Origin: a virus
Strand: one strand, 5' to 3'
DNA: 37,639 nucleotides
IMG/VR virus record: IMGVR_UViG_3300036857_000154
Location: 1-37,639 of that record
In this document: positions 3,790-35,514 of the stretch, piece after piece
How the letters are laid out: each line of letters starts with the position of its first letter
How positions within the stretch are numbered: the first letter of the stretch is position 1
Translations under genes and position numbers: made by a program
Notes under the pieces: model-generated
Databases searched by the model: none
What the model was told of the DNA's origin: nothing
What the model saw: only the letters and a program-made list of their open reading frames with translations

Positions 3790-4052
3790 GACCGGCCCAG
3801 CAGCTCCCGCATGGCGCGATCGAACTCGGCCTTGTGCACGATCACGCCGGCCGAGGGGGTGATGTCGGCAGTCCGCATCTCGGTCAACAGGTGATCGAGC
3901 AGGACATGCGCGCTGACTAGCGCCGCCATCAGCCTGGCGCGCTGGGAGCCGAGCTCGGCCAGATTCTGGCAAGCCAGCCGCAGCGCGTTATCGTTGCGCC
4001 GGCACTGGTCGATCAGGTCGGCGACGTCCTCGCTAACTTCGGTATCGCTCAT
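3786..4052 (-). CDS. Hypothetical helical protein (88 aa)
   Basis: I chose ATG 4052 (MSDTEVSEDVADLIDQCRRND). The longer frame back to 4106 reads into the repeat array. The product is nearly all helix (CQNLAELGSQRARLMAALVSAHVLLDHLLTEMRT, residues ~29-62), resembling other small phage coiled-coil proteins. It is the first gene downstream of array 1 on the minus-strand transcript; its leader is the last array unit followed by GACAAA. Function unknown. Confidence 0.6.
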   Translation of the reverse strand: MSDTEVSEDVADLIDQCRRNDNALRLACQNLAELGSQRARLMAALVSAHVLLDHLLTEMRTADITPSAGVIVHKAEFDRAMRELLGRS

Positions 4053-4058
4053 TTTGTC

Positions 4059-4711
4059 TGGTGCCCTCTCCGCATCTGGCTCGCTCCCCGATAGTGGTGC
4101 CCTCAATTGGGTTGGCTCGCTCCGTTGGTTTGGCGCTCTCTCTGAGCCTGGCTCGCTTCCTCAAAATGGCGCGCTCTTCTGATGCTGGCTCGCTCGCGTC
4201 TGATGGCGCTCTCTGGCTCGCTCATGTCTAATGGCGCTCTCTGAATCCTTGGCTCGCTCGGCTTTAGTGGTGCTCTCGCATGGCATGGCTCGCTCTCTTC
4301 GCCTGGCGCTCTCTATTTGGGTGGCTCGCTCGCAGCGAATGGTGCTCTCTCGGACAGTGGCTCGCTCCCCTCGAAATGGCGCTCTCTTCAGTTATGGCTC
4401 GCTCCTTCGAGATGGCGCACTCCGGGTCAGTGGCTCGCTCCAGCCTTTCGGTACCCTCGCTACAGCTGGCTCGCTCGGGCAGTTTGGCGCTCTCCCAGCG
4501 GATGACTCGCTCGGCGCCCTTGGTGCTCTCCACCGGAGGTGGCTCGCTCGTCTTTCATGGCGCTCTCCTGAGTTGTGACTCGCTCTCGGTAAATGGCGCT
4601 CTCCTACTACGTGGCTCGCTCTTGTTACGCGGCACTCTCTCGGACCCTGGCTCGCTCGGTGGAGATGGTGCGCTCATTCTCGATGGCTCGCTCCGGTGCA
4701 GTGGTGCTCTC
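4059..4711. repeat. Dimorphic short-repeat array 1 (about 37 units)
   Basis: Two related 10-bp units alternate strictly: A = TGGCTCGCTC and B = TGGCGCTCTC (commonly TGGTGCTCTC; also TGGTGCCCTC, TGGCGCACTC). They are separated by spacers with no visible consensus, nearly all 8 bp, giving an 18-bp period and a 36-bp AB period. Two spacers are 9 bp and one is absent (around 4213). The array fills the whole gap between the stop of the transposase-like gene (4723) and the start of the next minus-strand gene (4052). On the transcribed minus strand the units read GAGCGAGCCA and GAGAGCGCCA. Spacer length changes break the reading frame, so the array is not coding. Confidence 0.9.
4594..4621. repeat. 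28-bp block shared with array 2
   Basis: The segment unit B, spacer CTACTACG, unit A at 4594-4621 recurs exactly at 5619-5646 in array 2. It is the only spacer I found repeated between the two arrays. It suggests that the arrays exchange or copy units. Confidence 0.85.
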
Positions 4712-4722
4712 TTTGGCGCTGG

Positions 4723-5529
4723 CTATTTCCAGTTTGGCGGCTTGATCTCGTGCGCGTGGCCACCCTCCTTCGTGAGGATGTACGGCTTGGGCGGCTTCTC
4801 GCCGGTGTCGATCTCCCACCACACGCTGTGCAGATGTGACAGGAACAGCTTGACCACCCAGCGCCGCGCCCGCCCGTCGATCTGTGCCGGCGGCAACTTG
4901 CCCGTAAGCAAGTGCTTGTACGCCTCGGTCGACTTGTTGAACTTGGGCAGCAGCTCGGCGGCGCGCGCGGCGTTCCCGCCGCTGTCGTTGCGGGCAACCT
5001 CGAACGCCTTGCGCTCGCGGTAGAGCCTCCCGTAATAGCAATCCTCGGCGTTGGAGAACTTCATGAAGCTCTGACCGATCTTCCAGGTCAGGGTCTTGAG
5101 CGAGGCATTCCACGGGCGCTTCTCGCCCTTGCCCCAGGTCACCGAGGGGTCGAGCCCGGCGAACCGCCAGATGTGGCCGACGGTCGGACACTTCTTGATA
5201 TCGATGTGCGCAATGAGCCCGGCCGAGATCACCGGCCCGATGCCGTAGATGCCCAGCATCCACTTGCCGACCTCCTTGCTCTGGGCGTAGCGCCCGAGCG
5301 CGGTCTTGAGCTGGCTCTCCAGCACCTCGTTCTGCTCGGCAAACCAAGTCAGCAACAGGTGCGGCTCCTCGCTCTTGTCGAGCGCGCGCACCTGATTGTT
5401 CGAGCGCTTGCGGTCCTCCTGGATGATGTAATAGGCGTCGACCAGGAAGCGCGCTTCCTCGTCCGACAGCGTGGCGGCGGCGATCCTCAGATCGGTCGAT
5501 AGTCTGGCTACGTGTACCTGTTCGTCCAT
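4723..5529 (-). CDS. IS110/IS116-type Transposase_20-domain protein lacking the DEDD domain
   Basis: ATG at 5529 is preceded by AGGAGCG. The 268-aa protein has a helical N-terminal region (1-90). A helix-hairpin-helix-like motif follows (GIYGIGPVISAGLIAHIDI, residues 93-111), then HIWRFAGLDPSVTWGKGEKR (119-138) and a helix LKTLTWKIGQSFMKF. This order matches the C-terminal Transposase_20 domain of IS110-family recombinases (G-I-G-P, then G-L-x-P and a Ser/Gly-Lys loop). A second conserved-looking block, RARRWVVKLFLSHLHSVWWE (210-229), follows. The RuvC-like DEDD domain that IS110 enzymes carry at the N-terminus is not recognisable, so cutting activity is doubtful. The gene is bounded on both sides by the dimorphic repeat arrays. 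No inverted-repeat ends of an insertion sequence are visible. A role in recognising or remodelling the arrays is inference. Confidence 0.7.
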   Translation of the reverse strand: MDEQVHVARLSTDLRIAAATLSDEEARFLVDAYYIIQEDRKRSNNQVRALDKSEEPHLLLTWFAEQNEVLESQLKTALGRYAQSKEVGKWMLGIYGIGPVISAGLIAHIDIKKCPTVGHIWRFAGLDPSVTWGKGEKRPWNASLKTLTWKIGQSFMKFSNAEDCYYGRLYRERKAFEVARNDSGGNAARAAELLPKFNKSTEAYKHLLTGKLPPAQIDGRARRWVVKLFLSHLHSVWWEIDTGEKPPKPYILTKEGGHAHEIKPPNWK

Positions 5530-5546
5530 GGGACGCTCCTATCTGG

Positions 5547-5865
5547 TGGTGCTCTCTAGTGTTGTGGCTCGCTCGTCTTATTTGGCGCACTCTTTCGTAC
5601 TGACTCGCTCCAACCATTTGGCGCTCTCCTACTACGTGGCTCGCTCAATGTTTCTGGTGCTCTCAGATGCGCTGGCTCGCTCTGCGCTAGTGGTGCACTC
5701 CGGTGTCTGTGGCTCGCTCCTATCCGTATGGTGCCCTCAGCAGGTCTGGCTCGCTCGTTCTACGTGGTGCTCTCACATAACCCGGCTCGCTCGAATGGGA
5801 ATGGCGCTCTCATCGGTGACGGCTCGCTCTCTCTATGTGGCGCTCTCAGTTTGCGTGGCTCACTT
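5547..5865. repeat. Dimorphic short-repeat array 2 (about 18 units)
   Basis: Same alternation as array 1: A (TGGCTCGCTC; variants TGACTCGCTC, CGGCTCGCTC) and B (TGGCGCTCTC, TGGTGCTCTC, TGGTGCACTC, TGGTGCCCTC) with spacers of 8 bp and three of 9 bp. It spans the complete interval between the stop codon of the 5860-6102 gene (the last, degenerate A unit includes that stop) and the ribosome-binding site of the transposase-like gene. Spacer sequences differ from those of array 1 except for one shared 28-bp block. Confidence 0.9.
5619..5646. repeat. 28-bp block shared with array 1
   Basis: Exact second copy of the B-CTACTACG-A block at 4594-4621. The flanking spacers (CAACCATT before, AATGTTTC after) differ from those of the first copy (TCGGTAAA, TTGTTACG), so identity is confined to the block. 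Confidence 0.85.
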
Positions 5866-6102
5866 CCGTAGCTCTGTCATCGCCTGGCTCCAGGCCTCCT
5901 TCGCGGTGGCGAGCCCGGGGCTCATCACCTGCCCCTCCGGTAACCACGCCAAGTACGCCTCGATCAGTTGACAGGACCGATCGAGCGCGTTGATCAGCTT
6001 GACGTTGCCGGCGCGGGATATCTCCAGCTCGCGCTTGAGCCTGGCGATCTCCTCGGCCGCTTGCGGGAGCCCGTGCCAATCGCACAACTCTTCCGTCGAC
6101 AT
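5860..6102 (-). CDS. Small helical phage protein (80 aa), first gene of minus-strand operon
   Basis: ATG at 6102 follows GGGGGGAGAG; the ATG at 6120 has no such site. The product MSTEELCDWHGLPQAAEEIA continues as a helix (RLKRELEISRAGNVKLINALDRS) and ends EAWSQAMTELRK. This fits the coiled-coil small-protein type of phage early regions. The stop lies inside the last degenerate unit of array 2. It is the promoter-proximal gene of the minus-strand operon that contains both arrays and the transposase-like gene. Confidence 0.6.
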   Translation of the reverse strand: MSTEELCDWHGLPQAAEEIARLKRELEISRAGNVKLINALDRSCQLIEAYLAWLPEGQVMSPGLATAKEAWSQAMTELRK

Positions 6103-6139
6103 GCTCTCCCCCCGCTTCATAAAGTTCCCGTATCACGTA

Positions 6140-6174: not shown

Positions 6175-6366
6175 ATGGGCATAACTCAAAGGCCGGTGCG
6201 CGCCGGTCCGCCCCGGCGGGTCCGCCGCCCGGGCGCGTTCATGATTCGGGTGAGTGACGAGGAGCGCCGCGTCCTGCATCAGGCCGCGGCACTCTCCGGG
6301 CTCAGCACATCGAGCTGGGCGCGCATGAAGCTGCTGGAGATCGCACGCAAGGAGGAGCGCAAATGA
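6175..6366 (+). CDS. Small basic, possibly ribbon-helix-helix-like protein
   Basis: ATG at 6175 starts a 63-aa protein with an Arg/Pro-rich N-terminus. A core follows, FMIRVSDEERRVLHQAAALS, then GLSTSSWARMKLLEIARKEE. A short strand (MIRVSDEE) before two helices is the layout of ribbon-helix-helix DNA-binding proteins such as CopG/DUF1778 relatives. It sits directly on the divergent promoter region and could repress either transcript. It is coupled by ATGA to the next gene. A shorter start at 6241 (MIRVSDEE) is possible. Confidence 0.5.
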   Translation: MGITQRPVRAGPPRRVRRPGAFMIRVSDEERRVLHQAAALSGLSTSSWARMKLLEIARKEERK

Positions 6367-6668
6367 GCCTGCACGACACCACGTTCGGCTATCTCAATCC
6401 GACCGAAGATCAGAAGGACCGCATGGTGATCGTGCGCAGCGCTGCGGCCGATTACGCCAAGACGCTGGAGCGCGAGCTGCCCGATGGCCCCGACAAGACC
6501 TACATCCTGCGCACGCTGCGTACCGTCGCGATGTGGGCCAATGTCGCGATCACCCGCCACCCCGACGGCTCGCCGCGTGAGCATGAGCCCGACGAAGGCA
6601 TCATCGCCGCGCGGGAATACCCCCCTGATCATCCGGCGCCCGGTGACCTCGGCACCATCCCGACGTAA
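6363..6668 (+). CDS. acb2-like: Acb2/Tad1-type cyclic-nucleotide sponge (anti-CBASS), probable
   Basis: The 101-aa protein begins with NPTEDQKDRMVIVRSAAADY, then LERELPDGPDKTYILRTLRT and VAMWANVAITRHPDG. This is two helices around a P-D-G-x-D-K turn, with a terminal A-x-W-A-N-x-A-I helix (residues ~12-66). The pattern fits the helical-hairpin family of phage Acb2, which binds cyclic di- and trinucleotides and blocks CBASS and Thoeris immunity as a hexamer. The acidic, Pro-rich C-terminal tail is extra. Start ATG overlaps the previous stop as ATGA. Assignment rests on pattern memory, not on an alignment. Confidence 0.6.
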   Translation: MSLHDTTFGYLNPTEDQKDRMVIVRSAAADYAKTLERELPDGPDKTYILRTLRTVAMWANVAITRHPDGSPREHEPDEGIIAAREYPPDHPAPGDLGTIPT

Positions 6669-6677
6669 AAGAGGGGT

Positions 6678-8381
6678 GTGAAGAAACGAATCGAGCCACT
6701 CCCCCCTCTCGATCCCCCGGGTGCCGTCACCGAGGTCGACCCGGCGGCCGCCGAGGCAACCCTAAAGGCGCTGCGCACCGAGATCGGGCTGCGCAAGGAA
6801 CGAAAGGCCCAGGCATGTGCGGGGGGGTTGGTAGCGTTTGTCCGGTACTTCTGGTCGGTCCTGGAGCCGGAGACCAAGCTGGTCGAGGGCTGGCTCCTGG
6901 AGGCGATCTGCCTGCACCTGGAGGCGGTGACCTTCGGCAAGATCACCCGGCTGCTGATCAACGTCCCGCCGGGCTCGATGAAATCGCTGATGGTGAACGT
7001 GTTCTGGCCCGCCTGGGAATGGGGGGCGATGGGGATGCCTCACCTGAGATACGTCAGCTTCTCCTACTCCTCGGGCTTGACCGAGCGTGACAATACCAAG
7101 TTCCGCAAGCTGGTGATGTCGGACCGCTACCGGGAGCTCTGGGGTGACAAGTTCAATCTCGAAAAAGAAGGTGAGATCAAAATCACCAACGACAAGACGG
7201 GCAGCAAGTTCGCCTCGTCCGTCAAAGGTATCGGCACCGGAGAGCGTGGCGACCGAGTTGTTATCGATGATCCTCACGACGTTCACAAGTCTGAGTCGGA
7301 TGTCGTGCGAACCGATACTGTTCGATGGTTCCGTGAAACAATCACCGATCGTCTCAATAACCTGGACGATTCGGCGATTATCATCATCATGCAGAGGGTC
7401 CATCAAGCGGACATCTCTGGATTCATCCTCGAACAGGGCTGGCTCTACTGTCACCTCATGGTGCCGATGGAGTTTGAGTCTGGACGGGAACCTTATAATC
7501 CACTGGGCTGGGTGGACCCGCGCACAGAAGACGGCGATCTGGCGTGGCCTCAAAGGTTTAGCCCGGAAGCGGTCGCCAACATCGAGCGCGAGAAAGGATC
7601 CTTCGCCTACGCCGGGCAGTACCAGCAGCGCCCAAGCCCTCGTGGCGGAGGCATTATCAAACGAGAGCATTGGCGGCCTTACACCCCGCAAGAATGCGGC
7701 AAGTTCGGCGTTCCGTGGCCGAAGTTCCCGATTATGAGCTACACGGTGCTGAGCCTGGACACGGCTCAGACCGAGAAGAAGCAGAACGATCCCTCGGCCG
7801 CGGTGATCCTCGGCATCACCAAGGACATCTGGGAGAACCGCCGGGTGATCCTGATGTGGGCCTGGACCGAGCGCATGGAGCTCTACGAGCTCGTGCGCAA
7901 GATCGAGGAGACCTGCAAAAAGTTCAAAGTCGACCGGGTCCTGATCGAGGACAAGGCATCCGGCTATCCGGTGGCGCAGGAGCTGCGCCGCCGCGGCCGC
8001 ACTATCTCCGACAAGCTCGGGCACAACCCCAAGACCGAGGACCGCGCCGATTTCGGGGTGCAGCTGCTTACCCCGGAAGGCGACAAGGTGGCCCGGCTCT
8101 ATGCCGTGCAGAACCTGTTCGAGTGCGGGCTGATCTATGCGCCGGCCGAGGACAACGGCGCCGGCGACTTCCTGTTCAAGGAATGGGCCGACAAGGTGAT
8201 CGGCCAGTGCGCGGATGCCCCCAAAGGGCAGTATGATGACCTGGCCGACTGCATCTCTCAGGCGCTGATCTATCTGCGCAAGCTCGGACTGATCACGCTG
8301 CCGGACGAGGACGAGATCGATCACATCGATGACGATAAGTATCGCTCGGCGTCCCAGCCCTTGTATCCGGCGATGGCCTGA
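6678..8381 (+). CDS. terL: Terminase large subunit (packaging ATPase and nuclease)
   Basis: GTG at 6678 follows GAGGGGT. The 567-aa enzyme has an ATPase domain with a Walker A-like loop (NVPPGSMKSL, residues 95-104) and Walker B (RVVIDDPHD, 193-201). A coupling segment (IIIIMQRVHQADISG) follows. The C-terminal RNase H-like nuclease shows D361 (LSLDTAQ), E424/D425 (LIEDKASG) and YDDLADCISQAL near residue 530. It translocates DNA into the prohead through the portal and makes the packaging cuts. Length is typical. Codons in ~7160-7660 are noticeably less GC-rich than the rest, suggesting mosaic exchange. No small terminase gene is recognised nearby. Confidence 0.93.
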   Translation: MKKRIEPLPPLDPPGAVTEVDPAAAEATLKALRTEIGLRKERKAQACAGGLVAFVRYFWSVLEPETKLVEGWLLEAICLHLEAVTFGKITRLLINVPPGSMKSLMVNVFWPAWEWGAMGMPHLRYVSFSYSSGLTERDNTKFRKLVMSDRYRELWGDKFNLEKEGEIKITNDKTGSKFASSVKGIGTGERGDRVVIDDPHDVHKSESDVVRTDTVRWFRETITDRLNNLDDSAIIIIMQRVHQADISGFILEQGWLYCHLMVPMEFESGREPYNPLGWVDPRTEDGDLAWPQRFSPEAVANIEREKGSFAYAGQYQQRPSPRGGGIIKREHWRPYTPQECGKFGVPWPKFPIMSYTVLSLDTAQTEKKQNDPSAAVILGITKDIWENRRVILMWAWTERMELYELVRKIEETCKKFKVDRVLIEDKASGYPVAQELRRRGRTISDKLGHNPKTEDRADFGVQLLTPEGDKVARLYAVQNLFECGLIYAPAEDNGAGDFLFKEWADKVIGQCADAPKGQYDDLADCISQALIYLRKLGLITLPDEDEIDHIDDDKYRSASQPLYPAMA

Positions 8382-17547: not shown

Positions 17548-18084
17548 ATGCCAAAGGAGAGGATGCCGGTCGAGAAGGTCAGGGAGCTGTTCTGGTACGA
17601 CAAGAAGACGGGAGAGCTGATCTGGCGGGTTGCCCCGAAGTGGGGAGTGAGAATCGGCGATCGAGCTGGGACGATCCACACGGATGCGAAGGGCTACAAG
17701 AGCAGGCAGGTTGGATATCAGCGAAAGATTTACGTCGCATCGCATCTGATCTGGGCCTGGATGACAGGTGAGTGGCCGAAGGAGACGGTCGATCACAAGA
17801 ACAACAATGCCACCGACGATAGATGGGAGAATCTGAGAGCGGCCACTCAAGCAGAGCAGATGCGGAACACCCGGACGTTTCGCACCAACTCAACCGGCTA
17901 CAAGGGTGTGACACGATACGTTGATCCCAGGACCCGCGATGGAAAGCACTATCGGTGGCAGATCATGGTGGACGGCAAGCGATATAAATCACCAGACCGC
18001 TTCATGACCGCCGAAGAGGCGTACGAGGATTACCTGCGGAACCAGTTTCGTTTCCATGGTGAGTTCGCAAACAAGGGGGCCTAG
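17548..18084 (+). CDS. AP2-HNH homing endonuclease (178 aa)
   Basis: Residues ~8-60 are the usual N-terminal part (RELFWYDKKTGELIWRVAPK...). The HNH core is SHLIWAWMTGEWPKETVDHK followed by NNNATDDRWENLR (~residues 70-102). An AP2-type DNA-binding segment follows (GYKGVTRYVDPRTRDGKHYR ... AEEAYEDYLRNQFRFHGEF). Such free-standing enzymes cut DNA of related phages at the insertion point and spread by repair. It lies between the capsid gene and the next structural gene, with its own promoter and a hairpin over its ribosome-binding site. Codons are less GC-rich than those of its neighbours, a sign of transfer. Confidence 0.88.
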   Translation: MPKERMPVEKVRELFWYDKKTGELIWRVAPKWGVRIGDRAGTIHTDAKGYKSRQVGYQRKIYVASHLIWAWMTGEWPKETVDHKNNNATDDRWENLRAATQAEQMRNTRTFRTNSTGYKGVTRYVDPRTRDGKHYRWQIMVDGKRYKSPDRFMTAEEAYEDYLRNQFRFHGEFANKGA

Positions 18085-23968: not shown

Positions 23969-24277
23969 ATGGCCCTCGTCTACGCCTACGAGCCCGAATA
24001 CCGCAAGGCCGGCTGGTTCGACAACAGCGCGCGCACGGCGCCTCAGTGGTTCGATCGCGATCTGGTCGAGGATCCGCCGAAGAACCTGATGATATTCGCG
24101 CCAGACCTGTTCCTGGATGACGATATCTTCTTCGCGGACGCGCACGCGCCATTCATCCGGGTCGAGCTCCTTCCTGCACTGTTCGACGACGCCGATCTGT
24201 TCTTCATCCCGTCCAGCGTCAGGGCGCTTGATGTGCCGGACCAGATGCTACGTAATGAAGTATGGAGGGTGAGGTGA
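23969..24277 (+). CDS. Small protein sharing YEPxYxxxGW motif with the nozzle protein
   Basis: ATG at 23969; 102 aa. The start (YAYEPEYRKAGWFDNSARTA, then PQWFDRDLVED) matches a segment inside the 25910-28747 protein (LYEPQYKAPGWYEDSGLMPI, SWFDRDLAAE). The rest (LFLDDDIFFADAHAPFIRVE) is rich in Phe/Asp. Its stop overlaps the HNH gene's GTG start. It may be a separate copy of the inserted domain's leading strand; function unknown. Confidence 0.6.
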   Translation: MALVYAYEPEYRKAGWFDNSARTAPQWFDRDLVEDPPKNLMIFAPDLFLDDDIFFADAHAPFIRVELLPALFDDADLFFIPSSVRALDVPDQMLRNEVWRVR

Positions 24278-24783
24278 TCACACTCGAACGGCTGCGCGAG
24301 GTCCTGGAGTACAACCCGGAGAGTGGGGTCTGGGTGTGGCGTGCCTGCACAGGGTCTGGCGGCGTGGGGGGATGGAAGGCGAAGCCGGGGAAGATTGCGG
24401 GATCGCTCGATAACAACGGCTATGTCGTCATTTGTATCGATCGTGCGATCTACAAGGCTCACCGATTGGCGTGGCTCTACATGACCGGGTCGTGGCCGCG
24501 CAGCACGATCGATCACATCAATCTTGAACCCGCCGACAATCGCTGGGTCAATCTGCGGGAGGCCACCTACAGTCAGAACAATGCGAATCGGAAACTGGTG
24601 TCTCTCAATAAGAGCGGACTGAAGGGAGTGAGTTGGGACAAGCGGGCCGGGAGATGGAGGGCGCAAAGTTCGGCAGGAGGGCGGTCTGTGTATCTCGGTC
24701 TCTATGACACGAAAGAAGAAGCCAGTGCAGCTTATCGTGCCTGGGCCAAGGAAACCTTTGGTGAGTTTTATTACGAGCAATAG
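24274..24783 (+). CDS. AP2-HNH homing endonuclease (169 aa)
   Basis: I chose GTG 24274, placed 5 nt after GGAGGGTGAG and overlapping the previous stop (GTGA); ATG 24262 is the longer alternative. The N-terminal part VLEYNPESGVWVWRACTGSG is followed by the HNH core AHRLAWLYMTGSWPRSTIDH, then INLEPADNRWVNLREAT. An AP2 segment follows (SGLKGVSWDKRAGRWRAQSS ... YLGLYDTKEEASAAYRAWAK). Codons are less GC-rich than in neighbours. Its 3' end lies where the next gene's start codon should be. Confidence 0.87.
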   Translation: MITLERLREVLEYNPESGVWVWRACTGSGGVGGWKAKPGKIAGSLDNNGYVVICIDRAIYKAHRLAWLYMTGSWPRSTIDHINLEPADNRWVNLREATYSQNNANRKLVSLNKSGLKGVSWDKRAGRWRAQSSAGGRSVYLGLYDTKEEASAAYRAWAKETFGEFYYEQ

Positions 24784-29452: not shown

Positions 29453-29528
29453 AGATATAGCGGACACGCTCGCCTCTCTGCCTGTGTCGATGGAGCAGAT
29501 TCTGGCGGAGGTCGGCCATGCCGCTTAA
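29442..29528 (+). CDS. Possible 28-aa peptide
   Basis: ATG at 29442 follows GGCGGAG and overlaps the end of the preceding gene. MPLRDIADTLASLPVSMEQI, then LAEVGHAA is a plausible amphipathic helix. It overlaps the start of the giant gene (29518) by 11 bp. Coupled reading frames on both sides favour a real gene, but length is small. Confidence 0.4.
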   Translation: MPLRDIADTLASLPVSMEQILAEVGHAA

Positions 29529-32500
29529 GCCGGGCTCCAGCCGAGCGGTGGTAAGCCAGAACATCCGCGAGATGATGCATTCTGGCTATCCGCAAAAGCA
29601 GGCGATTGCAGCGTCACTTTCAAACGCTCGGCGGCATCCCGGCCGGGCCGAGGGCGGTCTGGTCAACCACGATCATGATCCCGAGCTCCCGCCGCTGCAG
29701 GACGATGCGCGGCTGGACAATGTCATGCCGGGGCTGCAACAGACGCCGCCGGCCTACCTCGACACGATCGAGCGTCTACTCCAGGGGCAGCGCCGGCTGC
29801 AGGGCCTCGATGATCCCAGGTTCTTCTACAGGCCCGATCGCGAGAACGGCGGCATTCCTCAGCTGCGCGGAGGGCGCCGGCATCGGCGCGGCAGTCCACC
29901 GCCGCCGGATGGGACCATCGAGGAGCTCTGGGACACCTCGCGCCCACGCCCGCCAGGTCTCCAGGACGGGGGCAGCTGCGGAAGTTGCGAGGGCTCGTGC
30001 GGCGGTTCGTGGGGTGATGCGGGCGCGGCCGATTTCAGCGGGTTCGATGCCACTGGCGGGGTAGGCACCGCGGCGTTCACCGCGGGCCAGATCGCCGACT
30101 TCAACATGAGCAACCCTGGTGTCTCGACCGGCCCCGGCGAGTGGGGCGGCTGGGGCAGCTGGGCCACCTCGACCGGTGATATTGCCAACATCATGGGCAA
30201 CCTGGCGAACTTCAACGTCCAGGATCCCAACAACATCAACGTCAATCTCGGGCGGAGCTTCGATCAGCCGTTCTCCACCATGACCACCAGCAACTGGGCG
30301 CAGGCCGGGCTGGTGAACACCGAACCGACCGGTTCCGTCTTTGGCGGCGGCTGGAGCACTCCCTCCAGCGGCGGCTTCTCCCGCGGCACCTCCGACATCG
30401 ATCCCACCGATCCCACTGGCGATCGCGGCTACATCACCAGCCCGGGCTTCGATCCCAATGCGCAGAATCCCAGCCGGGATGTGACGCCACCTGATCCCGA
30501 TGCCAACATACCGAGCACCTGGGACCAGGAGCCGGGTGACCGCGGTAGCAGAGGTGAGCCAGAGACCAAGAGCGAGCCGGAGTCGAAGGGCAGTCCGGAC
30601 CTGGCCTCGATCCTCGATGACGAGCGCAGCCAGGACACCCCCTCGGCTCCGGAGGCGTCACCGGAAGCGCCCGAGGCACCAGAGGCTCCCCAGGCGGCTC
30701 CCGAGGCGAAGACCTCGGAGCCGGCCGCCGTCTCGACGCCGAGCTCGCGCGGGGTTGGCGAGCCAGAGGTGTCGCCTGGCGGTGGCGGCCGCGGTGTAGG
30801 CGACGTTACGCCGAGCGAGACGCCGGACTACGCCGGCGCGCCTTACGCTGATCCGTCGAGCTTGGTTGATACGCCGAGCTATGTGGGAGCGCCTTACGTC
30901 GATCCCACGACGCTGATCGATACACCGAACTACGTGGGGGCGCCTTACGTTGATCCCGGTAGTTTGATCAGCACGCCGGATTTTGCTCCACCGTCTGCGC
31001 CTGGATGGCTCTCTACGGTGGGAGACTGGACGAATAACTGGGCGAGCAACTGGGGAGCCGATGTCCCCGCCGCCCCGGGACGTGCAGATCCCAATGCAAA
31101 CCCGTTGGATGTGCTGACTCAATCTGGCACTTGGTACAACACGGAGCGCGGGGAAAAGGCGTTCGCACAGGCGCCCTCGATCTTCGCTCCCAGCACCTGG
31201 TCGAGGGATCCGTTCGCGCAAACGGTGCTTTCCTATCCGTTGTCGGCAGGAAAGGCCGCATACGATTATCTCTCCAACTTGTCGGTGCCGTCGCTGCCCA
31301 GCTGGCCAGGCACACAGGGCTATCAAGAGCCATCGGAGACGTTTGAACCCGGGGACTCGGGACCAGCCGCAGCCCAGAGCCTTGCCACGCAGCTGGGGAT
31401 CGATCAGATCGGTGCCAACATAACGCCGGCAGAGTTTGCCCCCGGCCAGCCCGGGATGACGGACTTCCAGGGCGCGGACCTGGCCGCCTTTGCTCCCGGC
31501 GAGCCCGGTATGACGGATTTCACGGGCTCGCCCTACGGTGGCTTCTCGCTCAGCGAACCAGGGCACACGACCTTCGAGGGCGCGCCGACCGTAAGCGAGT
31601 TCTCTCCCGGCCAGCCTGGGATGACGACATTCGAGGGCTCGCCCTACGGCGGTTTCTCGCTCAGCGAGCCGGGGCAGACCCAAGGCGGGCAGTATGCCGA
31701 TGTGCTGGACACCGGCAGCATCGCGTACCAGACGGCGCCCGATACCGCCTATTCGCCTGGCGCTCAGCCGCAGGATGAGCCCGGATATTACGCCTCTCCG
31801 ACTGAGACCGCTGCCAATGCGGCCGCTGTGAACACTGGCGCCTCACAAGAGGCCGCGAATGCCGCCTCCGCTGCCGCGGCGGAGTCTGCCGCAAATGGCG
31901 GTACCCCCAGCGAACAGGGCGATGCCGCTGCGGTCGCTGCCGCGCAAGCCGGCGCTACGGCGGAGCAAGCGAACGCGATTGGTGATGAGGTTGCCGCTGC
32001 TGCTGCCGCCCGCGGCGAGCCCGACGAAGGTGCTCGCGGCGAGCCTGGTGCGAAGGGTGAGAGGACTGAGACGAGCAAGGGCGAGACGAGGGGGCCTGGA
32101 TACATCCTCGCTCCGATTGACCCGATCACCGCGTACATGTGGGGGCAAACCCCGCAGATATCGCTGCCGCCGGCGGTCATAGACATCTCTCCGGGGCAGA
32201 GAGGTGCCGCTCCCGCTGAGCCGACGGCGCCTTCTGGTGAGCCAGATGTGCAGGAGGTGACCCCGGGGGCCGTTAATCTGCCTGCGACGACACCGCCGCC
32301 GGCTGAGCCGCAGGCGCAGCCTGGCCAGCGCGGCGAGGAGTTCTACGGCCCTGATGTGATGCAAGGCGGGCGAGATCTGCAGCGCGGCACAGTCGACCTT
32401 CCGGCGCGGCCGGGCATCGTCGAATCGATCATTGGGGTGCCGCGAGAGCCGTCGCAGGAGCTCCCACCGCCGACATGGACCGCGCCCGTCCAAGAGCGGA

Positions 32501-35500
32501 CGGGGTTCCGCGGCCTGACCTCGCCCGGTGTCACGCCAGCGACGGTGCCGCCAGGCACATTCCCGCCGGCTGTAGAGCCGGCCCTGCCGGGAGGAACGCA
32601 AACAGCGCAAACCCAGCCGCTGCCGAAGACTGCCGAGCCGGGTCTGGTCAATCTGCCGCCGACGGCTCCGCCGGTCGAACCGACGCCGCCCGCGCAGCCG
32701 GGTGTGCCGCCGACGATCCCGCCGACGATCCCGGCCATTCCGCCGGCGTTGCCGCGTTCACGGCCCAGGGAGGAACAGAAGCAAGAGGCCAAGGGCGACC
32801 AGAGGGACTCGGTCCAGAACCAGGGCAAGTACACCTCGGATCCTAACCGCGGGCCGATTGGCCCGGACCAGCCCAACGTGGTGCAGAATCAGGGCAGTGC
32901 GCAGTTCCGCACTCAGACGATCAATTCGAGCCTAAATGGAATCCTTGACAAAGCAGCCGAGGCGGCCGGCGTTCAAGTCAGCGTCTTCTCTGGCGGGCAA
33001 ATGGGCAAGGGCGAGAAGGGCTCTGCCGGTCATCGCACGGGCTCGATACGTCACGATCACGGCAACGCAGCAGACGTACAGCTGTTTGATCGCGCGACCG
33101 GGCGCTTGCTCGACTTTACCAAGCCAGGCGACAAGGCGCAGATGCAGGCGTTCGTGCGTGAGGCGGCGCGGCTCGGTGCGACGGGGCAGGGCGCGGCTGC
33201 CAACTACATGGGCACGACGTCCATACACGTTGGTTTCGGTGGCACCAACTTCTGGGGCGCTAAGGGCGGAGGTGCACCTAACGCTGACTTGCGCAGCGCC
33301 TGGGCGGAGGGTGTGCAGAGCCGCGGTGAGCGGGGCGAGCCTGGTGCGCGGACACGCGGGCAGCGGGCGGAAGCGCGCCAGGCGCAGCAGGCGGGGCGAA
33401 CGACAGCGGCGCGTGGCCGGAGCGGGCGGCAAGGGCGGGCGACACAGAGCTTCTCGTCCCGGGCACAGCAGTCACAATCGCGGTCGGCGGCGGAGGCAAA
33501 TGCGCGAGCCACGTATGGCCCTGCGGATGGACTAACCAACTACGGCCCGCAGGATCGTGGCAATCGCGATATCCCGGCATCGCTGCGCTACAACAATCCC
33601 GGCGCGGCGATGGCGAACAGGTTCTCGGCCCAGTTCGGGATGACTGATTACAACTCGAACATGGATCGGACCGGCCGAAACTCTATTGCCGGGTATCCCA
33701 CGCAAGTCCATGGGCTGGCGAACAACATCGCACTCGCGATGAATAGCTATGTCGGAAAGTCGATTAGTAATGCGATGCGGACGTGGTCGGGGGCAAATCG
33801 GTCTGTGGTTGGTCCTGGATATCCGGTCTCGACCAAGGGGGTCCTGACGCAGGACATGGTGCTCGATCCGGCGTTCTGGAATGCGATGGTCGGCTCGGAG
33901 TCCGGCAGAGGGGGAGGGCTGACAACCGATCAGATCAACGAGGCCATTGCAATGTACCAGGCAGGCAGCGCTGAGGCGTGGGAGATGGCTAACCCCAACT
34001 CACAAACGACGATCGCTGCCAACGCCTTCCGTGATGCGGCTAGAGCAAGTGGCACGCTCGGTCGGGACTGGGCGAGCACGCAGCTGGGTGGGCGCGGTGA
34101 GCGCGGTGGTCGGCAGGGCGGCGGGTTCAACTACGGCGTATCGCAGTCCCAGCTGGCGCGGACACTGGACGCGGAGCGGCAAGCGCAGACTGCGCCGGCA
34201 ACGCAAGAGACGGAGCCCGCGACGGTGGCGGTGCCGCATGCGCGCGGCGGCCTGGTGCAGACCTACGCCGACGGCGGTGACGTCGAGCCCGAGACGCTGG
34301 CGGATGGCACGCCGTTGCCGCGGCCGCGGCCGCGCCCGATGCAGGTGCAGCCCGACCGCGACTATCGTTCGTTGCTGACGGCCCGGCCGCAGTCCGAAGC
34401 CCAGACCTGGTCGCAACGCGAGGTGCCCAGTGGACGCTGGCAGGACTATCAGTCTGAGAACCTGACGCCGGAGGAGTATCCCCGGACCGGCCTGCCGCCG
34501 CCCGAGTTCTCGAACTACGAGAAGCTCTTCCGCGAGCGCTATCCGCGCACACAGGGGGCGCCGCGGCAGCCGGCGCCGCCGAAGGAGGTTGTCTACGCGC
34601 GCGGCGGCCTGGTCGAGATGCCGGGCGTGCCGGCGGCGCTGGGCAATGCGTTCGACAATGTCGGCTACAGCCGCCCGGGCGAGGTCAACCCGCCGATGCC
34701 GGATACGGGTGATCAGCAGCCTCCGCCCGCGGCCTCGCCGCCGCAGTCTCCGTTCCCGACCTTTGGTGCGATGGCGCAGGGCGGCCTGGTCGACATGCCC
34801 GGGTACTACGAGGGCGGCGGCGACATCCTCGGCGCCGACGACATGGGGCAATACGGCAACCAGGCGCGGGCGCAGGGCCAGGCGATGACGCGCGCCTATG
34901 ATCCGGAGGATCTGGCCAAGCCGTTCGGCTACGCCAAGGGCGGCGGCCTCGACAGCTCCTCAATGCGAGCGCTCGGGCTGCAGTCGCACTTCACCGGCGT
35001 CAACGTGAGGCCCGAGCTCGCGCTCAGCAAGCCCGACTCGCCGGGCGTGCACTTGATCAACTCTAGTGTCCCGGGAAGGACGGACCGTCTCCCGATGCGC
35101 GCGCGCACCGGGTCCTTCATCCTGCCGGCGGATGTCGTGTCCGGGCTAGGGCAGGGCAACACCTCAGCTGGCGCAAAGATGTGGGGGCAGACGCTGGCGC
35201 ATGCGATCGGCCCGATGGGGATCAGCACCGCGATCAAGACGCGGGCGATGCGGGCGCCGTCGCTGCGCATGCCGTCGCCGACGGTGCGGCAGGCGAAGAT
35301 GCCGGGCTTCAAGTTCCAGGAGGGCGGTGAGGTCGAGGACGAGTTCACGCCGATCATCACCGCGGGCGGCGAGGCGGTGGTCGACCCGGAGATCGTGGAG
35401 GCGTTGGGCGGCGGCGATGCCGAGCTCGGCAAGCGCATGCTCACCGACTCGGTTAAGAGTGTACGCAAGCAGGTGATCGCCCACCTGCGCAGCCTACCGG

Positions 35501-35514
35501 GACCGGTGCAGTAA
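29518..35514 (+). CDS. Giant multidomain virion protein (1998 aa) with two hydrolase-like domains
   Basis: The N-terminus (residues 1-44: KPGSSRAVVSQNIREMMHSG, YPQKQAIAASLSNARRH) is a small helical domain common at the start of phage proteins. It is followed by ~1100 mostly disordered Gly/Pro/Ala/Glu residues. Repeats include APYxDP (436-490), F-x-PGxPGMTxF (638-722) and an Ala-rich part (762-835). Residues ~1135-1250 resemble M15-type peptidases: SIRHDHGNAADVQLFD gives a H-x-x-G-x-A-x-D pattern and TSIHVGFGG a later His. Residues ~1348-1480 (IPASLRYNNPGAAMANRFSA) resemble lytic-transglycosylase-like domains of virion proteins. Three GGLV motifs follow. The conserved C-terminal part is GRTDRLPMRARTGSFILPAD (~1845). 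It likely enters the cell envelope during infection. Confidence 0.72.
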   Translation: MPLKPGSSRAVVSQNIREMMHSGYPQKQAIAASLSNARRHPGRAEGGLVNHDHDPELPPLQDDARLDNVMPGLQQTPPAYLDTIERLLQGQRRLQGLDDPRFFYRPDRENGGIPQLRGGRRHRRGSPPPPDGTIEELWDTSRPRPPGLQDGGSCGSCEGSCGGSWGDAGAADFSGFDATGGVGTAAFTAGQIADFNMSNPGVSTGPGEWGGWGSWATSTGDIANIMGNLANFNVQDPNNINVNLGRSFDQPFSTMTTSNWAQAGLVNTEPTGSVFGGGWSTPSSGGFSRGTSDIDPTDPTGDRGYITSPGFDPNAQNPSRDVTPPDPDANIPSTWDQEPGDRGSRGEPETKSEPESKGSPDLASILDDERSQDTPSAPEASPEAPEAPEAPQAAPEAKTSEPAAVSTPSSRGVGEPEVSPGGGGRGVGDVTPSETPDYAGAPYADPSSLVDTPSYVGAPYVDPTTLIDTPNYVGAPYVDPGSLISTPDFAPPSAPGWLSTVGDWTNNWASNWGADVPAAPGRADPNANPLDVLTQSGTWYNTERGEKAFAQAPSIFAPSTWSRDPFAQTVLSYPLSAGKAAYDYLSNLSVPSLPSWPGTQGYQEPSETFEPGDSGPAAAQSLATQLGIDQIGANITPAEFAPGQPGMTDFQGADLAAFAPGEPGMTDFTGSPYGGFSLSEPGHTTFEGAPTVSEFSPGQPGMTTFEGSPYGGFSLSEPGQTQGGQYADVLDTGSIAYQTAPDTAYSPGAQPQDEPGYYASPTETAANAAAVNTGASQEAANAASAAAAESAANGGTPSEQGDAAAVAAAQAGATAEQANAIGDEVAAAAAARGEPDEGARGEPGAKGERTETSKGETRGPGYILAPIDPITAYMWGQTPQISLPPAVIDISPGQRGAAPAEPTAPSGEPDVQEVTPGAVNLPATTPPPAEPQAQPGQRGEEFYGPDVMQGGRDLQRGTVDLPARPGIVESIIGVPREPSQELPPPTWTAPVQERTGFRGLTSPGVTPATVPPGTFPPAVEPALPGGTQTAQTQPLPKTAEPGLVNLPPTAPPVEPTPPAQPGVPPTIPPTIPAIPPALPRSRPREEQKQEAKGDQRDSVQNQGKYTSDPNRGPIGPDQPNVVQNQGSAQFRTQTINSSLNGILDKAAEAAGVQVSVFSGGQMGKGEKGSAGHRTGSIRHDHGNAADVQLFDRATGRLLDFTKPGDKAQMQAFVREAARLGATGQGAAANYMGTTSIHVGFGGTNFWGAKGGGAPNADLRSAWAEGVQSRGERGEPGARTRGQRAEARQAQQAGRTTAARGRSGRQGRATQSFSSRAQQSQSRSAAEANARATYGPADGLTNYGPQDRGNRDIPASLRYNNPGAAMANRFSAQFGMTDYNSNMDRTGRNSIAGYPTQVHGLANNIALAMNSYVGKSISNAMRTWSGANRSVVGPGYPVSTKGVLTQDMVLDPAFWNAMVGSESGRGGGLTTDQINEAIAMYQAGSAEAWEMANPNSQTTIAANAFRDAARASGTLGRDWASTQLGGRGERGGRQGGGFNYGVSQSQLARTLDAERQAQTAPATQETEPATVAVPHARGGLVQTYADGGDVEPETLADGTPLPRPRPRPMQVQPDRDYRSLLTARPQSEAQTWSQREVPSGRWQDYQSENLTPEEYPRTGLPPPEFSNYEKLFRERYPRTQGAPRQPAPPKEVVYARGGLVEMPGVPAALGNAFDNVGYSRPGEVNPPMPDTGDQQPPPAASPPQSPFPTFGAMAQGGLVDMPGYYEGGGDILGADDMGQYGNQARAQGQAMTRAYDPEDLAKPFGYAKGGGLDSSSMRALGLQSHFTGVNVRPELALSKPDSPGVHLINSSVPGRTDRLPMRARTGSFILPADVVSGLGQGNTSAGAKMWGQTLAHAIGPMGISTAIKTRAMRAPSLRMPSPTVRQAKMPGFKFQEGGEVEDEFTPIITAGGEAVVDPEIVEALGGGDAELGKRMLTDSVKSVRKQVIAHLRSLPGPVQ

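What the first reader, a model, noticed from the sequence alone, without database searches (positions are those of the whole stretch)
4059..5865. Two dimorphic short-repeat arrays flanking an IS110-type Transposase_20 protein: candidate undescribed system
Seen: 10-bp units A (TGGCTCGCTC) and B (TGGCGCTCTC, variants) alternate strictly, ~37 times (4059-4711) and ~18 times (5547-5865). Spacers of 8-9 bp show no visible consensus. The arrays fill both gaps beside one gene exactly, from stop codon to ribosome-binding site. The gene encodes a Transposase_20-only protein with no visible DEDD domain. Known: IS110 recombinases use a structured non-coding bridge RNA, encoded next to the gene, with short guide loops of similar length. 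Inference: the arrays could be transcribed guide or binding arrays read by this protein, a phage locus where short variable segments are stored or exchanged, or a multivalent protein-binding DNA element. Nothing in the sequence distinguishes these.
Basis: partly seen in the sequence, partly recalled or inferred. Interest (0 to 1): 0.9.

Follow-up and report, generated by a model that had tools for sequence, protein, structure and literature searches.

The report
Phage RNA-guided TIGR-TasA system
This phage locus is a TIGR-Tas system, a recently described CRISPR-like way of aiming a DNA-binding protein with arrays of short paired guides; it is a new member of a known kind, but its fast-changing guide cassettes and close relatives bear on what such systems do for phages.

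Summary
Two arrays of strictly alternating 10-bp repeats (edge GAGCGAGCCA, loop GAGAGCGCCA and variants, read on the minus strand) with 8-9-nt spacers flank a 268-aa protein. It is not an undescribed system. It is a TIGR-Tas locus (Faure et al. 2025) with a nuclease-less TasA. The protein scores 202 bits against NCBI's TIGR-Tas model (cut-off 100). Its predicted structure matches TasH and TasR without their nuclease domains. The arrays show the defining anatomy: 36-nt units, truncated edge repeats at both ends, CCA boxes in both repeats. There are 28 predicted guides.

Beyond classification: arrays accompany the gene in 28 of 30 viral relatives. Spacers are not conserved; whole units are duplicated, lost, replaced and reordered faster than flanking DNA changes. 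The cassette sits exactly in a stop/start overlap that is intact in a related phage. Sister phages carry a second, very different TasA with up to 55 units. An Acb2/Tad1-like anti-defence gene lies beside it. No target was found for this array. One TasA prophage elsewhere has an exact 16-bp match to a satellite-like element in its own host, a lead only. Most likely function: RNA-guided binding that silences competing DNA.

The parts
4723..5529 (-). tasA: 268-aa solo Nop-domain protein (TasA), no nuclease domain
   Evidence: NCBIfam NF052498.1 TIGR_Tas_endo E=1.3e-59, 201.8 bits, cut-off 100; PDB TasR 9mty E=4.3e-12, TasH 21kl E=1.6e-9; AF2 model pLDDT 88.1, Z 19.9 to TasH 9vzx and 18.7 to TasR 9mty
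4045..4729 (-). TIGR array 1, downstream of tasA: 39 repeats, 19 predicted tigRNA units (one lacks spacer A)
   Evidence: begins with 5'-degenerate edge GAAATAGCCA (contains the tasA stop), ends with 3'-truncated edge GAGCGA inside the next gene's start
5534..5865 (-). TIGR array 2, upstream of tasA: 19 repeats, 9 predicted tigRNA units
   Evidence: begins with AAGTGAGCCA (contains the stop of the upstream gene), ends with truncated GAGCG just before the tasA ATG
5860..6120 (-). upstream gene, 86-aa small protein; boundary of the TIGR cassette
   Evidence: homologues in related phages, directly followed by the 88-aa gene in L151
3786..4052 (-). downstream gene, 88-aa small protein; other boundary of the cassette
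   Evidence: homologues in L125, L129, L131, L151
6363..6668 (+). Acb2/Tad1 hairpin-domain protein (anti-defence type), neighbour on the other strand
   Evidence: Pfam PF24729 E=2.3e-8, 34.5 bits, cut-off 27; homologues in L001, L128, L132, L151
6678..8381 (+). large terminase subunit; in sister phages a second TIGR array ends just before its start
   Evidence: PHROG 38 E=1.3e-76

Best explanation
A phage-borne dual-repeat TIGR-TasA locus. The minus strand is transcribed through array 2, tasA and array 1 as part of an operon (inferred). TasA and a host RNase cut the transcript into about 28 guide RNAs of 36 nt, each: half edge, spacer A, loop, spacer B, half edge (inferred from published TIGR systems). 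A TasA dimer on one guide pairs spacer A with one DNA strand and spacer B with the other, next to it, so it recognises about 16 bp written spacer A + reverse complement of spacer B, and opens and bends the DNA without cutting (inferred; shown experimentally only for relatives). With no nuclease, its most likely effect is to block transcription or replication of competing DNA such as other phages or satellites (inferred; the least certain step, about 50%). Guide repertoires change by duplication, loss, replacement and reordering of whole units (shown by comparison). The stated confidence is for the identification as TIGR-TasA.
For: Family: NCBIfam TIGR_Tas_endo at twice its cut-off; all 26 viral relatives tested also exceed it. 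Fold: near full-length match to TasH residues 65-308 and TasR 110-322, the parts after their nuclease domains. Arrays: every published anatomical feature of a dual-repeat TIGR array that was testable, bar the typical terminator (paper PMC12045711). Repeats nearly identical to those of the experimentally studied SpTIGR of Salicola phage CGphi29 (edge AAGCGAGCCA, loop AAGACAACCA). Co-occurrence: arrays beside tas in 28 of 30 viral loci, chain scores 22-267 against 3-14 in reversed sequence. Spacer turnover: L012/L014 differ over 12.7 kb by one duplicated 36-bp unit and nothing else; L024/L033 have 98% identical upstream flanks but many replaced units. Near-identical spacers within arrays: 33 observed, 4.9 expected.
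Against: No target was found for any of the window's units in its own contig or in about 1.8 Mb of related phage DNA; counts equal those of scrambled controls (relatives' units). No promoter or terminator was detected on the minus strand. Transcription, processing and DNA binding are not testable here. Blocking as the mode of action is inference; the paper itself leaves TasA's function open.
Confidence: 0.93

Rival explanations
1. The TIGR-TasA acts on the phage's own or host DNA as a regulator or integrase aid (RNA-guided DNA bending), rather than against competitors.
For: TasA lacks a nuclease and the TasR structure bends target DNA by about 180 degrees (PMC12045711). Spacer GC in this GC-rich phage (0.52 against 0.64) would fit AT-richer intergenic sites.
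Against: No self-match at 0 or 1 mismatch for 385 units against their own loci. Spacers turn over too fast for a fixed regulatory site.
Confidence: 0.2
2. An IS110-type transposon remnant whose flanking repeats are a relic or expansion of a bridge-RNA region.
For: Pfam Transposase_20 fragment (E=0.00084, below cut-off); PHROG 4285 is annotated 'transposase'; weaker fold match to IS621, Z 13.3.
Against: NCBIfam IS110 model scores 20 bits against a cut-off of 140; no DEDD domain; dual-repeat arrays are a mark of TIGR loci and present in the relatives.
Confidence: 0.02
3. Ordinary satellite DNA or a multivalent protein-binding DNA element beside an unrelated gene.
For: Within-array duplicates exist.
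Against: Alternation, repeat length, spacer length and box motifs persist in distant relatives while spacers do not; arrays track the gene.
Confidence: 0.02
4. A decayed TIGR locus that no longer works.
For: One unit lacks spacer A (4223/4213); several loop repeats carry substitutions.
Against: tasA is intact and keeps the invariant residues of the family; 27 of 28 units are complete; L001, 90% identical in TasA, has an equally regular array.
Confidence: 0.05

Closest known systems
TIGR-TasA, dual-repeat type (e.g. Flavonifractor plautii FpTIGR; Faure et al. 2025, PMC12045711)
   Same: Solo Nop-domain protein with dual-repeat TIGR arrays; 36-nt unit; truncated edge repeats at array ends.
   Different: 8-nt rather than 9-nt spacers; one long array (19 units; most often 5-15); no terminator found; no adjacent parB-like gene.
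SpTIGR-TasH of Salicola phage CGphi29
   Same: Nearly identical repeats (edge AAGCGAGCCA) and 8-nt spacers; structures 9vzx, 9w04, 21kl match the TasA model.
   Different: TasH carries an N-terminal HNH nuclease; the window's protein does not. About 25% identical.
TasR (9mty)
   Same: Nop domain, coiled coil and C-terminal domain fold.
   Different: The N-terminal RuvC part of TasR is absent here; alignment starts at TasR residue 110.
IS110 / IS621 bridge-RNA recombinases
   Same: Related RNA-binding (Nop-like) domain, Z 13.3.
   Different: DEDD catalytic domain absent; far below the IS110 model cut-off.

Membership tests
TIGR-Tas (dual-repeat) | Tas protein with Nop domain of the TIGR family | tested here: met
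   NF052498.1 201.8 bits, cut-off 100; Z 19.9 to TasH over 224 residues
TIGR-Tas (dual-repeat) | Array of two distinct alternating 8-12-nt repeats with about 9-nt spacers next to the gene | tested here: met
   10-nt edge and loop repeats, spacers 8 nt (49) or 9 nt (6), both sides of tasA; 8-nt spacers also occur in SpTIGR
[quoted passage not shown]
   GAAATAGCCA...GAGCGA and AAGTGAGCCA...GAGCG
TIGR-Tas (dual-repeat) | Shared box C / box D ends in edge and loop repeats | tested here: met
   Both repeats are GAG....CCA; a relative has changed both together (L007, CCC in both)
TIGR-Tas (dual-repeat) | Terminator after the array (typical, not defining) | tested here: inconclusive
   None found by a simple scan; array 1 runs directly into the next gene
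TIGR-Tas (dual-repeat) | Processing into 36-nt tigRNAs bound by Tas | not testable with these tools
   Unit length is 36 nt, consistent only
TIGR-Tas (dual-repeat) | Tandem-spacer targeting of both DNA strands | not testable with these tools
   No target found for this array in 1.8 Mb of related phage DNA
TasA subtype | No HNH or RuvC domain | tested here: met
   Pfam shows only a Transposase_20 fragment; model aligns to TasH 65-308 and TasR 110-322 only
TasA-TasParB operon | ParB-like gene in operon with tasA | tested here: not met
   Neighbouring proteins have no ParB match in Pfam
IS110 transposon | DEDD domain and score above the IS110 model cut-off | tested here: not met
   NF033542 20 bits against 140; match limited to residues 63-130
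CRISPR-Cas | 25-36-nt repeats with cas genes | tested here: not met
   Repeats are 10 nt and of two kinds; the window proteins searched match no Cas family

The most novel reading that the evidence does not exclude
Phage-borne TIGR-TasA is an RNA-guided silencer aimed at rival mobile elements, including phage satellites, and its guide repertoire evolves by whole-unit duplication, exchange and in-place divergence without acquisition proteins. The lead is a TasA locus in Acidobacteriaceae bacterium KBS 96, one of whose guides (TAAAAGCA / TTCGATTC) has its only gap-free exact 16-bp match in the chromosome at codons 9-14 of an HTH_17 regulator in a roughly 10-kb satellite-like element.
Probability: 0.25. 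Interest if true: 0.85.

Novelty: new member of a known kind. Interest (0 to 1): 0.5.

Why it matters
TIGR-Tas is a young family. Its discoverers list as open what TasA does, what the guides target and how arrays grow (PMC12045711). This locus and its relatives give concrete material for all three: a phage group with two very different TasA systems in one genomic island, array pairs that differ by single units, shared guide cassettes in changed order, an empty site, and one testable candidate target in a named bacterial genome.

Tried and rejected
Targets of the window's spacers: searched as spacer A + 0-2 nt + reverse complement of spacer B in the window, in the Tas loci and in 115 related phage loci, with order- and orientation-scrambled controls; no excess (relatives' second-type arrays). 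Two scans of IMG/VR with units conserved across phages gave 19 and at least 120 hits scattered over unrelated contigs, as chance would. Cognate-host search for nine TasA-bearing bacterial genomes, ungapped: one full match (KBS 96), one 15/16 match in a Halomonas ccmF-like gene, none in the others; one exact hit in a non-cognate genome fell in a pdxA-like gene. About 0.13 cognate exact matches were expected over all tests, so the KBS 96 hit is a lead, not a result; a second KBS 96 guide searched with 0-2 nt gaps had no match. Idea that TIGR loci generally lie beside the terminase: neighbours of 24 loci are varied, with at most a few more terminases near than far; dropped. Plasmid collection: no relative. 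Relatives of the window could not be drawn because it is a virus record. No tRNA in the window.

Full report
What is there. On the minus strand of the window, in the order of transcription, lie an 86-aa gene (6120-5860), a repeat array (5865-5534), a 268-aa gene (5529-4723), a second repeat array (4729-4045) and an 88-aa gene (4052-3786). The repeats are 10 nt and alternate strictly: edge GAGCGAGCCA and loop GAGAGCGCCA with variants such as GAGAGCACCA and GAGGGCACCA. There are 39 repeats in the downstream array and 19 in the upstream one. Of 56 spacers 49 are 8 nt, 6 are 9 nt and one is absent (the far part of array 1 read by hand). A chain score with the locus's own consensus is 143 in the sequence and 7 in its reverse.

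What it is. The 268-aa protein scores 201.8 bits against NCBIfam NF052498.1 'TIGR-Tas system RNA-guided endonuclease' (cut-off 100), and 20 bits against the IS110 model (cut-off 140). In the PDB its best sequence matches are TasR 9mty (4.3e-12) and TasH 21kl (1.6e-9); IS621 is at 0.41. An AlphaFold2 model from an alignment of window and locus proteins has mean pLDDT 88.1 and aligns over nearly its whole length with TasH residues 65-308 (Z 19.9, 224 residues, 3.0 A) and TasR residues 110-322 (Z 18.7), followed by IS621 (Z 13.3). The N-terminal HNH and RuvC parts of TasH and TasR have no counterpart, so this is a TasA. The array anatomy meets the published description (PMC12045711): two alternating 8-12-nt repeats, about 9-nt spacers, arrays up- and downstream, a 5'-truncated edge repeat first and a 3'-truncated one last, common box ends in both repeats, and a 36-nt unit (10+8+10+8). 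The repeats are nearly those of SpTIGR of Salicola phage CGphi29 (AAGCGAGCCA / AAGACAACCA), which was tested experimentally in that paper.

Co-occurrence. A scan of IMG/VR gave 37 loci with 43-90% identical proteins. In 30 loci with usable flanks (a few are near-duplicates of one another), 28 have an alternating array, in nearly all within about 2 kb of the gene (controls). Spacer sharing between loci is confined to close pairs apart from scattered single 8-mers of the kind chance gives.

How arrays change. L012 and L014 are identical over 12.7 kb except for one exact duplicate of a 36-bp unit; L025 and L026 differ by two units (assembly collapse cannot be excluded for a pure duplicate). L024 and L033 are 98% identical over 6.7 kb upstream, yet the tas-proximal units are all different and other units are replaced among conserved ones. 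Within arrays, spacers that differ by 0 or 1 base are seen 33 times where 4.9 are expected from column shuffles (the pool includes a few close relatives). So duplication followed by divergence is one source of new guides; replacement by unrelated spacers needs another, unknown source. In the window, the half unit CGTAGTAG occurs in both arrays, and one unit (TCGAGAAT/TCTCCACC) of the downstream array reappears with one change in the upstream array of L001.

A second TasA in sister phages. Phages with terminases about 73-86% identical to the window's include some that carry a TasA only about 23-24% identical (L132, L134, L127, L128), with an array of 36 to 55 units (edge nAGCGTGCCn, loop nAGYAAYCCn) that fills the space between tasA and the terminase start. 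L134 and L127 share 11 units, of which only 7 keep their order, while their flanks are about 87% identical. Single units are shared between more distant pairs (L127/L128, L132/L127, L134/L128).

The insertion site. In L151, a relative in whose fetched stretch no tas gene was found, the homologues of the 86-aa and 88-aa genes overlap stop-on-start (ATGA). In the window the whole array-tasA-array cassette lies exactly at that junction; its outer truncated repeats contain the stop of one gene and the start of the next. In L001 the cassette lies about 2 kb further along, and in L132 a different cassette lies on the other strand. This explains why the arrays 'fill the gaps exactly' and suggests that the locus is a movable cassette. 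Beside it, on the plus strand, is an Acb2/Tad1 hairpin protein (PF24729, 2.3e-8, above cut-off), a type known from anti-CBASS and anti-Thoeris sponges (own knowledge); in L132 tasA follows its homologue directly on the same strand.

Targets. By the published rule the target reads spacer A + (0-2) + reverse complement of spacer B; the order follows from the stated 8-nt 3' overhangs with the C-5 rule (own derivation). No excess over controls was found for the window's units or those of relatives in about 1.8 Mb. A genome scan found TasA in bacterial genomes, probably in prophages. For nine of these I searched the cognate genome for ungapped targets. One exact match was found: a guide of Acidobacteriaceae KBS 96 at 6,329,962-6,329,977 of its own chromosome, far from its tas locus (about 136 kb). 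It falls at codons 9-14 of an 86-aa HTH_17 gene in an element with a phage integrase, an HTH_3 repressor, a small terminase, an HK97-type capsid protein and a prohead protease, and no tail gene seen, which resembles a capsid-encoding phage satellite. Expected exact matches: 0.012 for this genome's six units, about 0.13 over all cognate tests (own arithmetic, 16-mers at equal base frequencies); a non-cognate control match fell in a pdxA-like gene. It is a lead that needs an experiment.

Mechanism and likelihood. Shown: family, predicted fold, array anatomy, co-occurrence, unit turnover, insertion site. Inferred from experiments on relatives: 36-nt guides, dimer binding, two-strand targeting. 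Inferred without direct support: blocking of competing DNA. Spacer GC (0.52) lies well below phage GC (0.64), which argues against random sampling of host or phage coding DNA of that GC; it would fit intergenic targets or guides partly shaped by mutation.

Verdict. The comparative material gives it more interest than a routine annotation.

Noticed in passing
window 6363-6668 (+): Acb2/Tad1 hairpin-domain protein (PF24729), an anti-defence type gene, directly beside the TIGR locus; in L132 its homologue is directly upstream of tasA on the same strand.
   Followed up: partly
L132:7679-9960, L134:7302-9990, L127:3379-5980, L128:1432-4560: Second, very divergent TasA with arrays of 36-55 units between tasA and the terminase gene in sister phages; L134 and L127 share 11 unit cassettes in changed order.
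   Followed up: partly
L312:7746-8003 (-), site 7963-7978: Exact 16-bp predicted target of a KBS 96 guide in an HTH_17 gene of a satellite-like element of the same chromosome.
   Followed up: partly
L293:4720-4985: Ca. Propionivibrio aalborgensis array holds two units that differ by one transition (GAAATAAC and GAAGTAAC, both with CACTGGTA), as if guiding to two variants of one site.
   Followed up: no
L299:4615-6016: Arrays on both sides of tasA share one identical unit (TCTCCAGC/GCGAGAAT), suggesting copying between arrays.
   Followed up: no
PHROG 4285 and Pfam PF02371: This TasA matches PHROG 4285, labelled 'transposase, integration and excision', so annotation by PHROGs will mislabel such TIGR systems.
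   Followed up: no
window 17548-18084 and 24262-24783 (+): Two HNH endonuclease genes (HNH_3), one with an AP2 domain, among the structural genes.
   Followed up: no
window 29518-35514 (+): A 1998-aa open frame with no match in NCBIfam.
   Followed up: no
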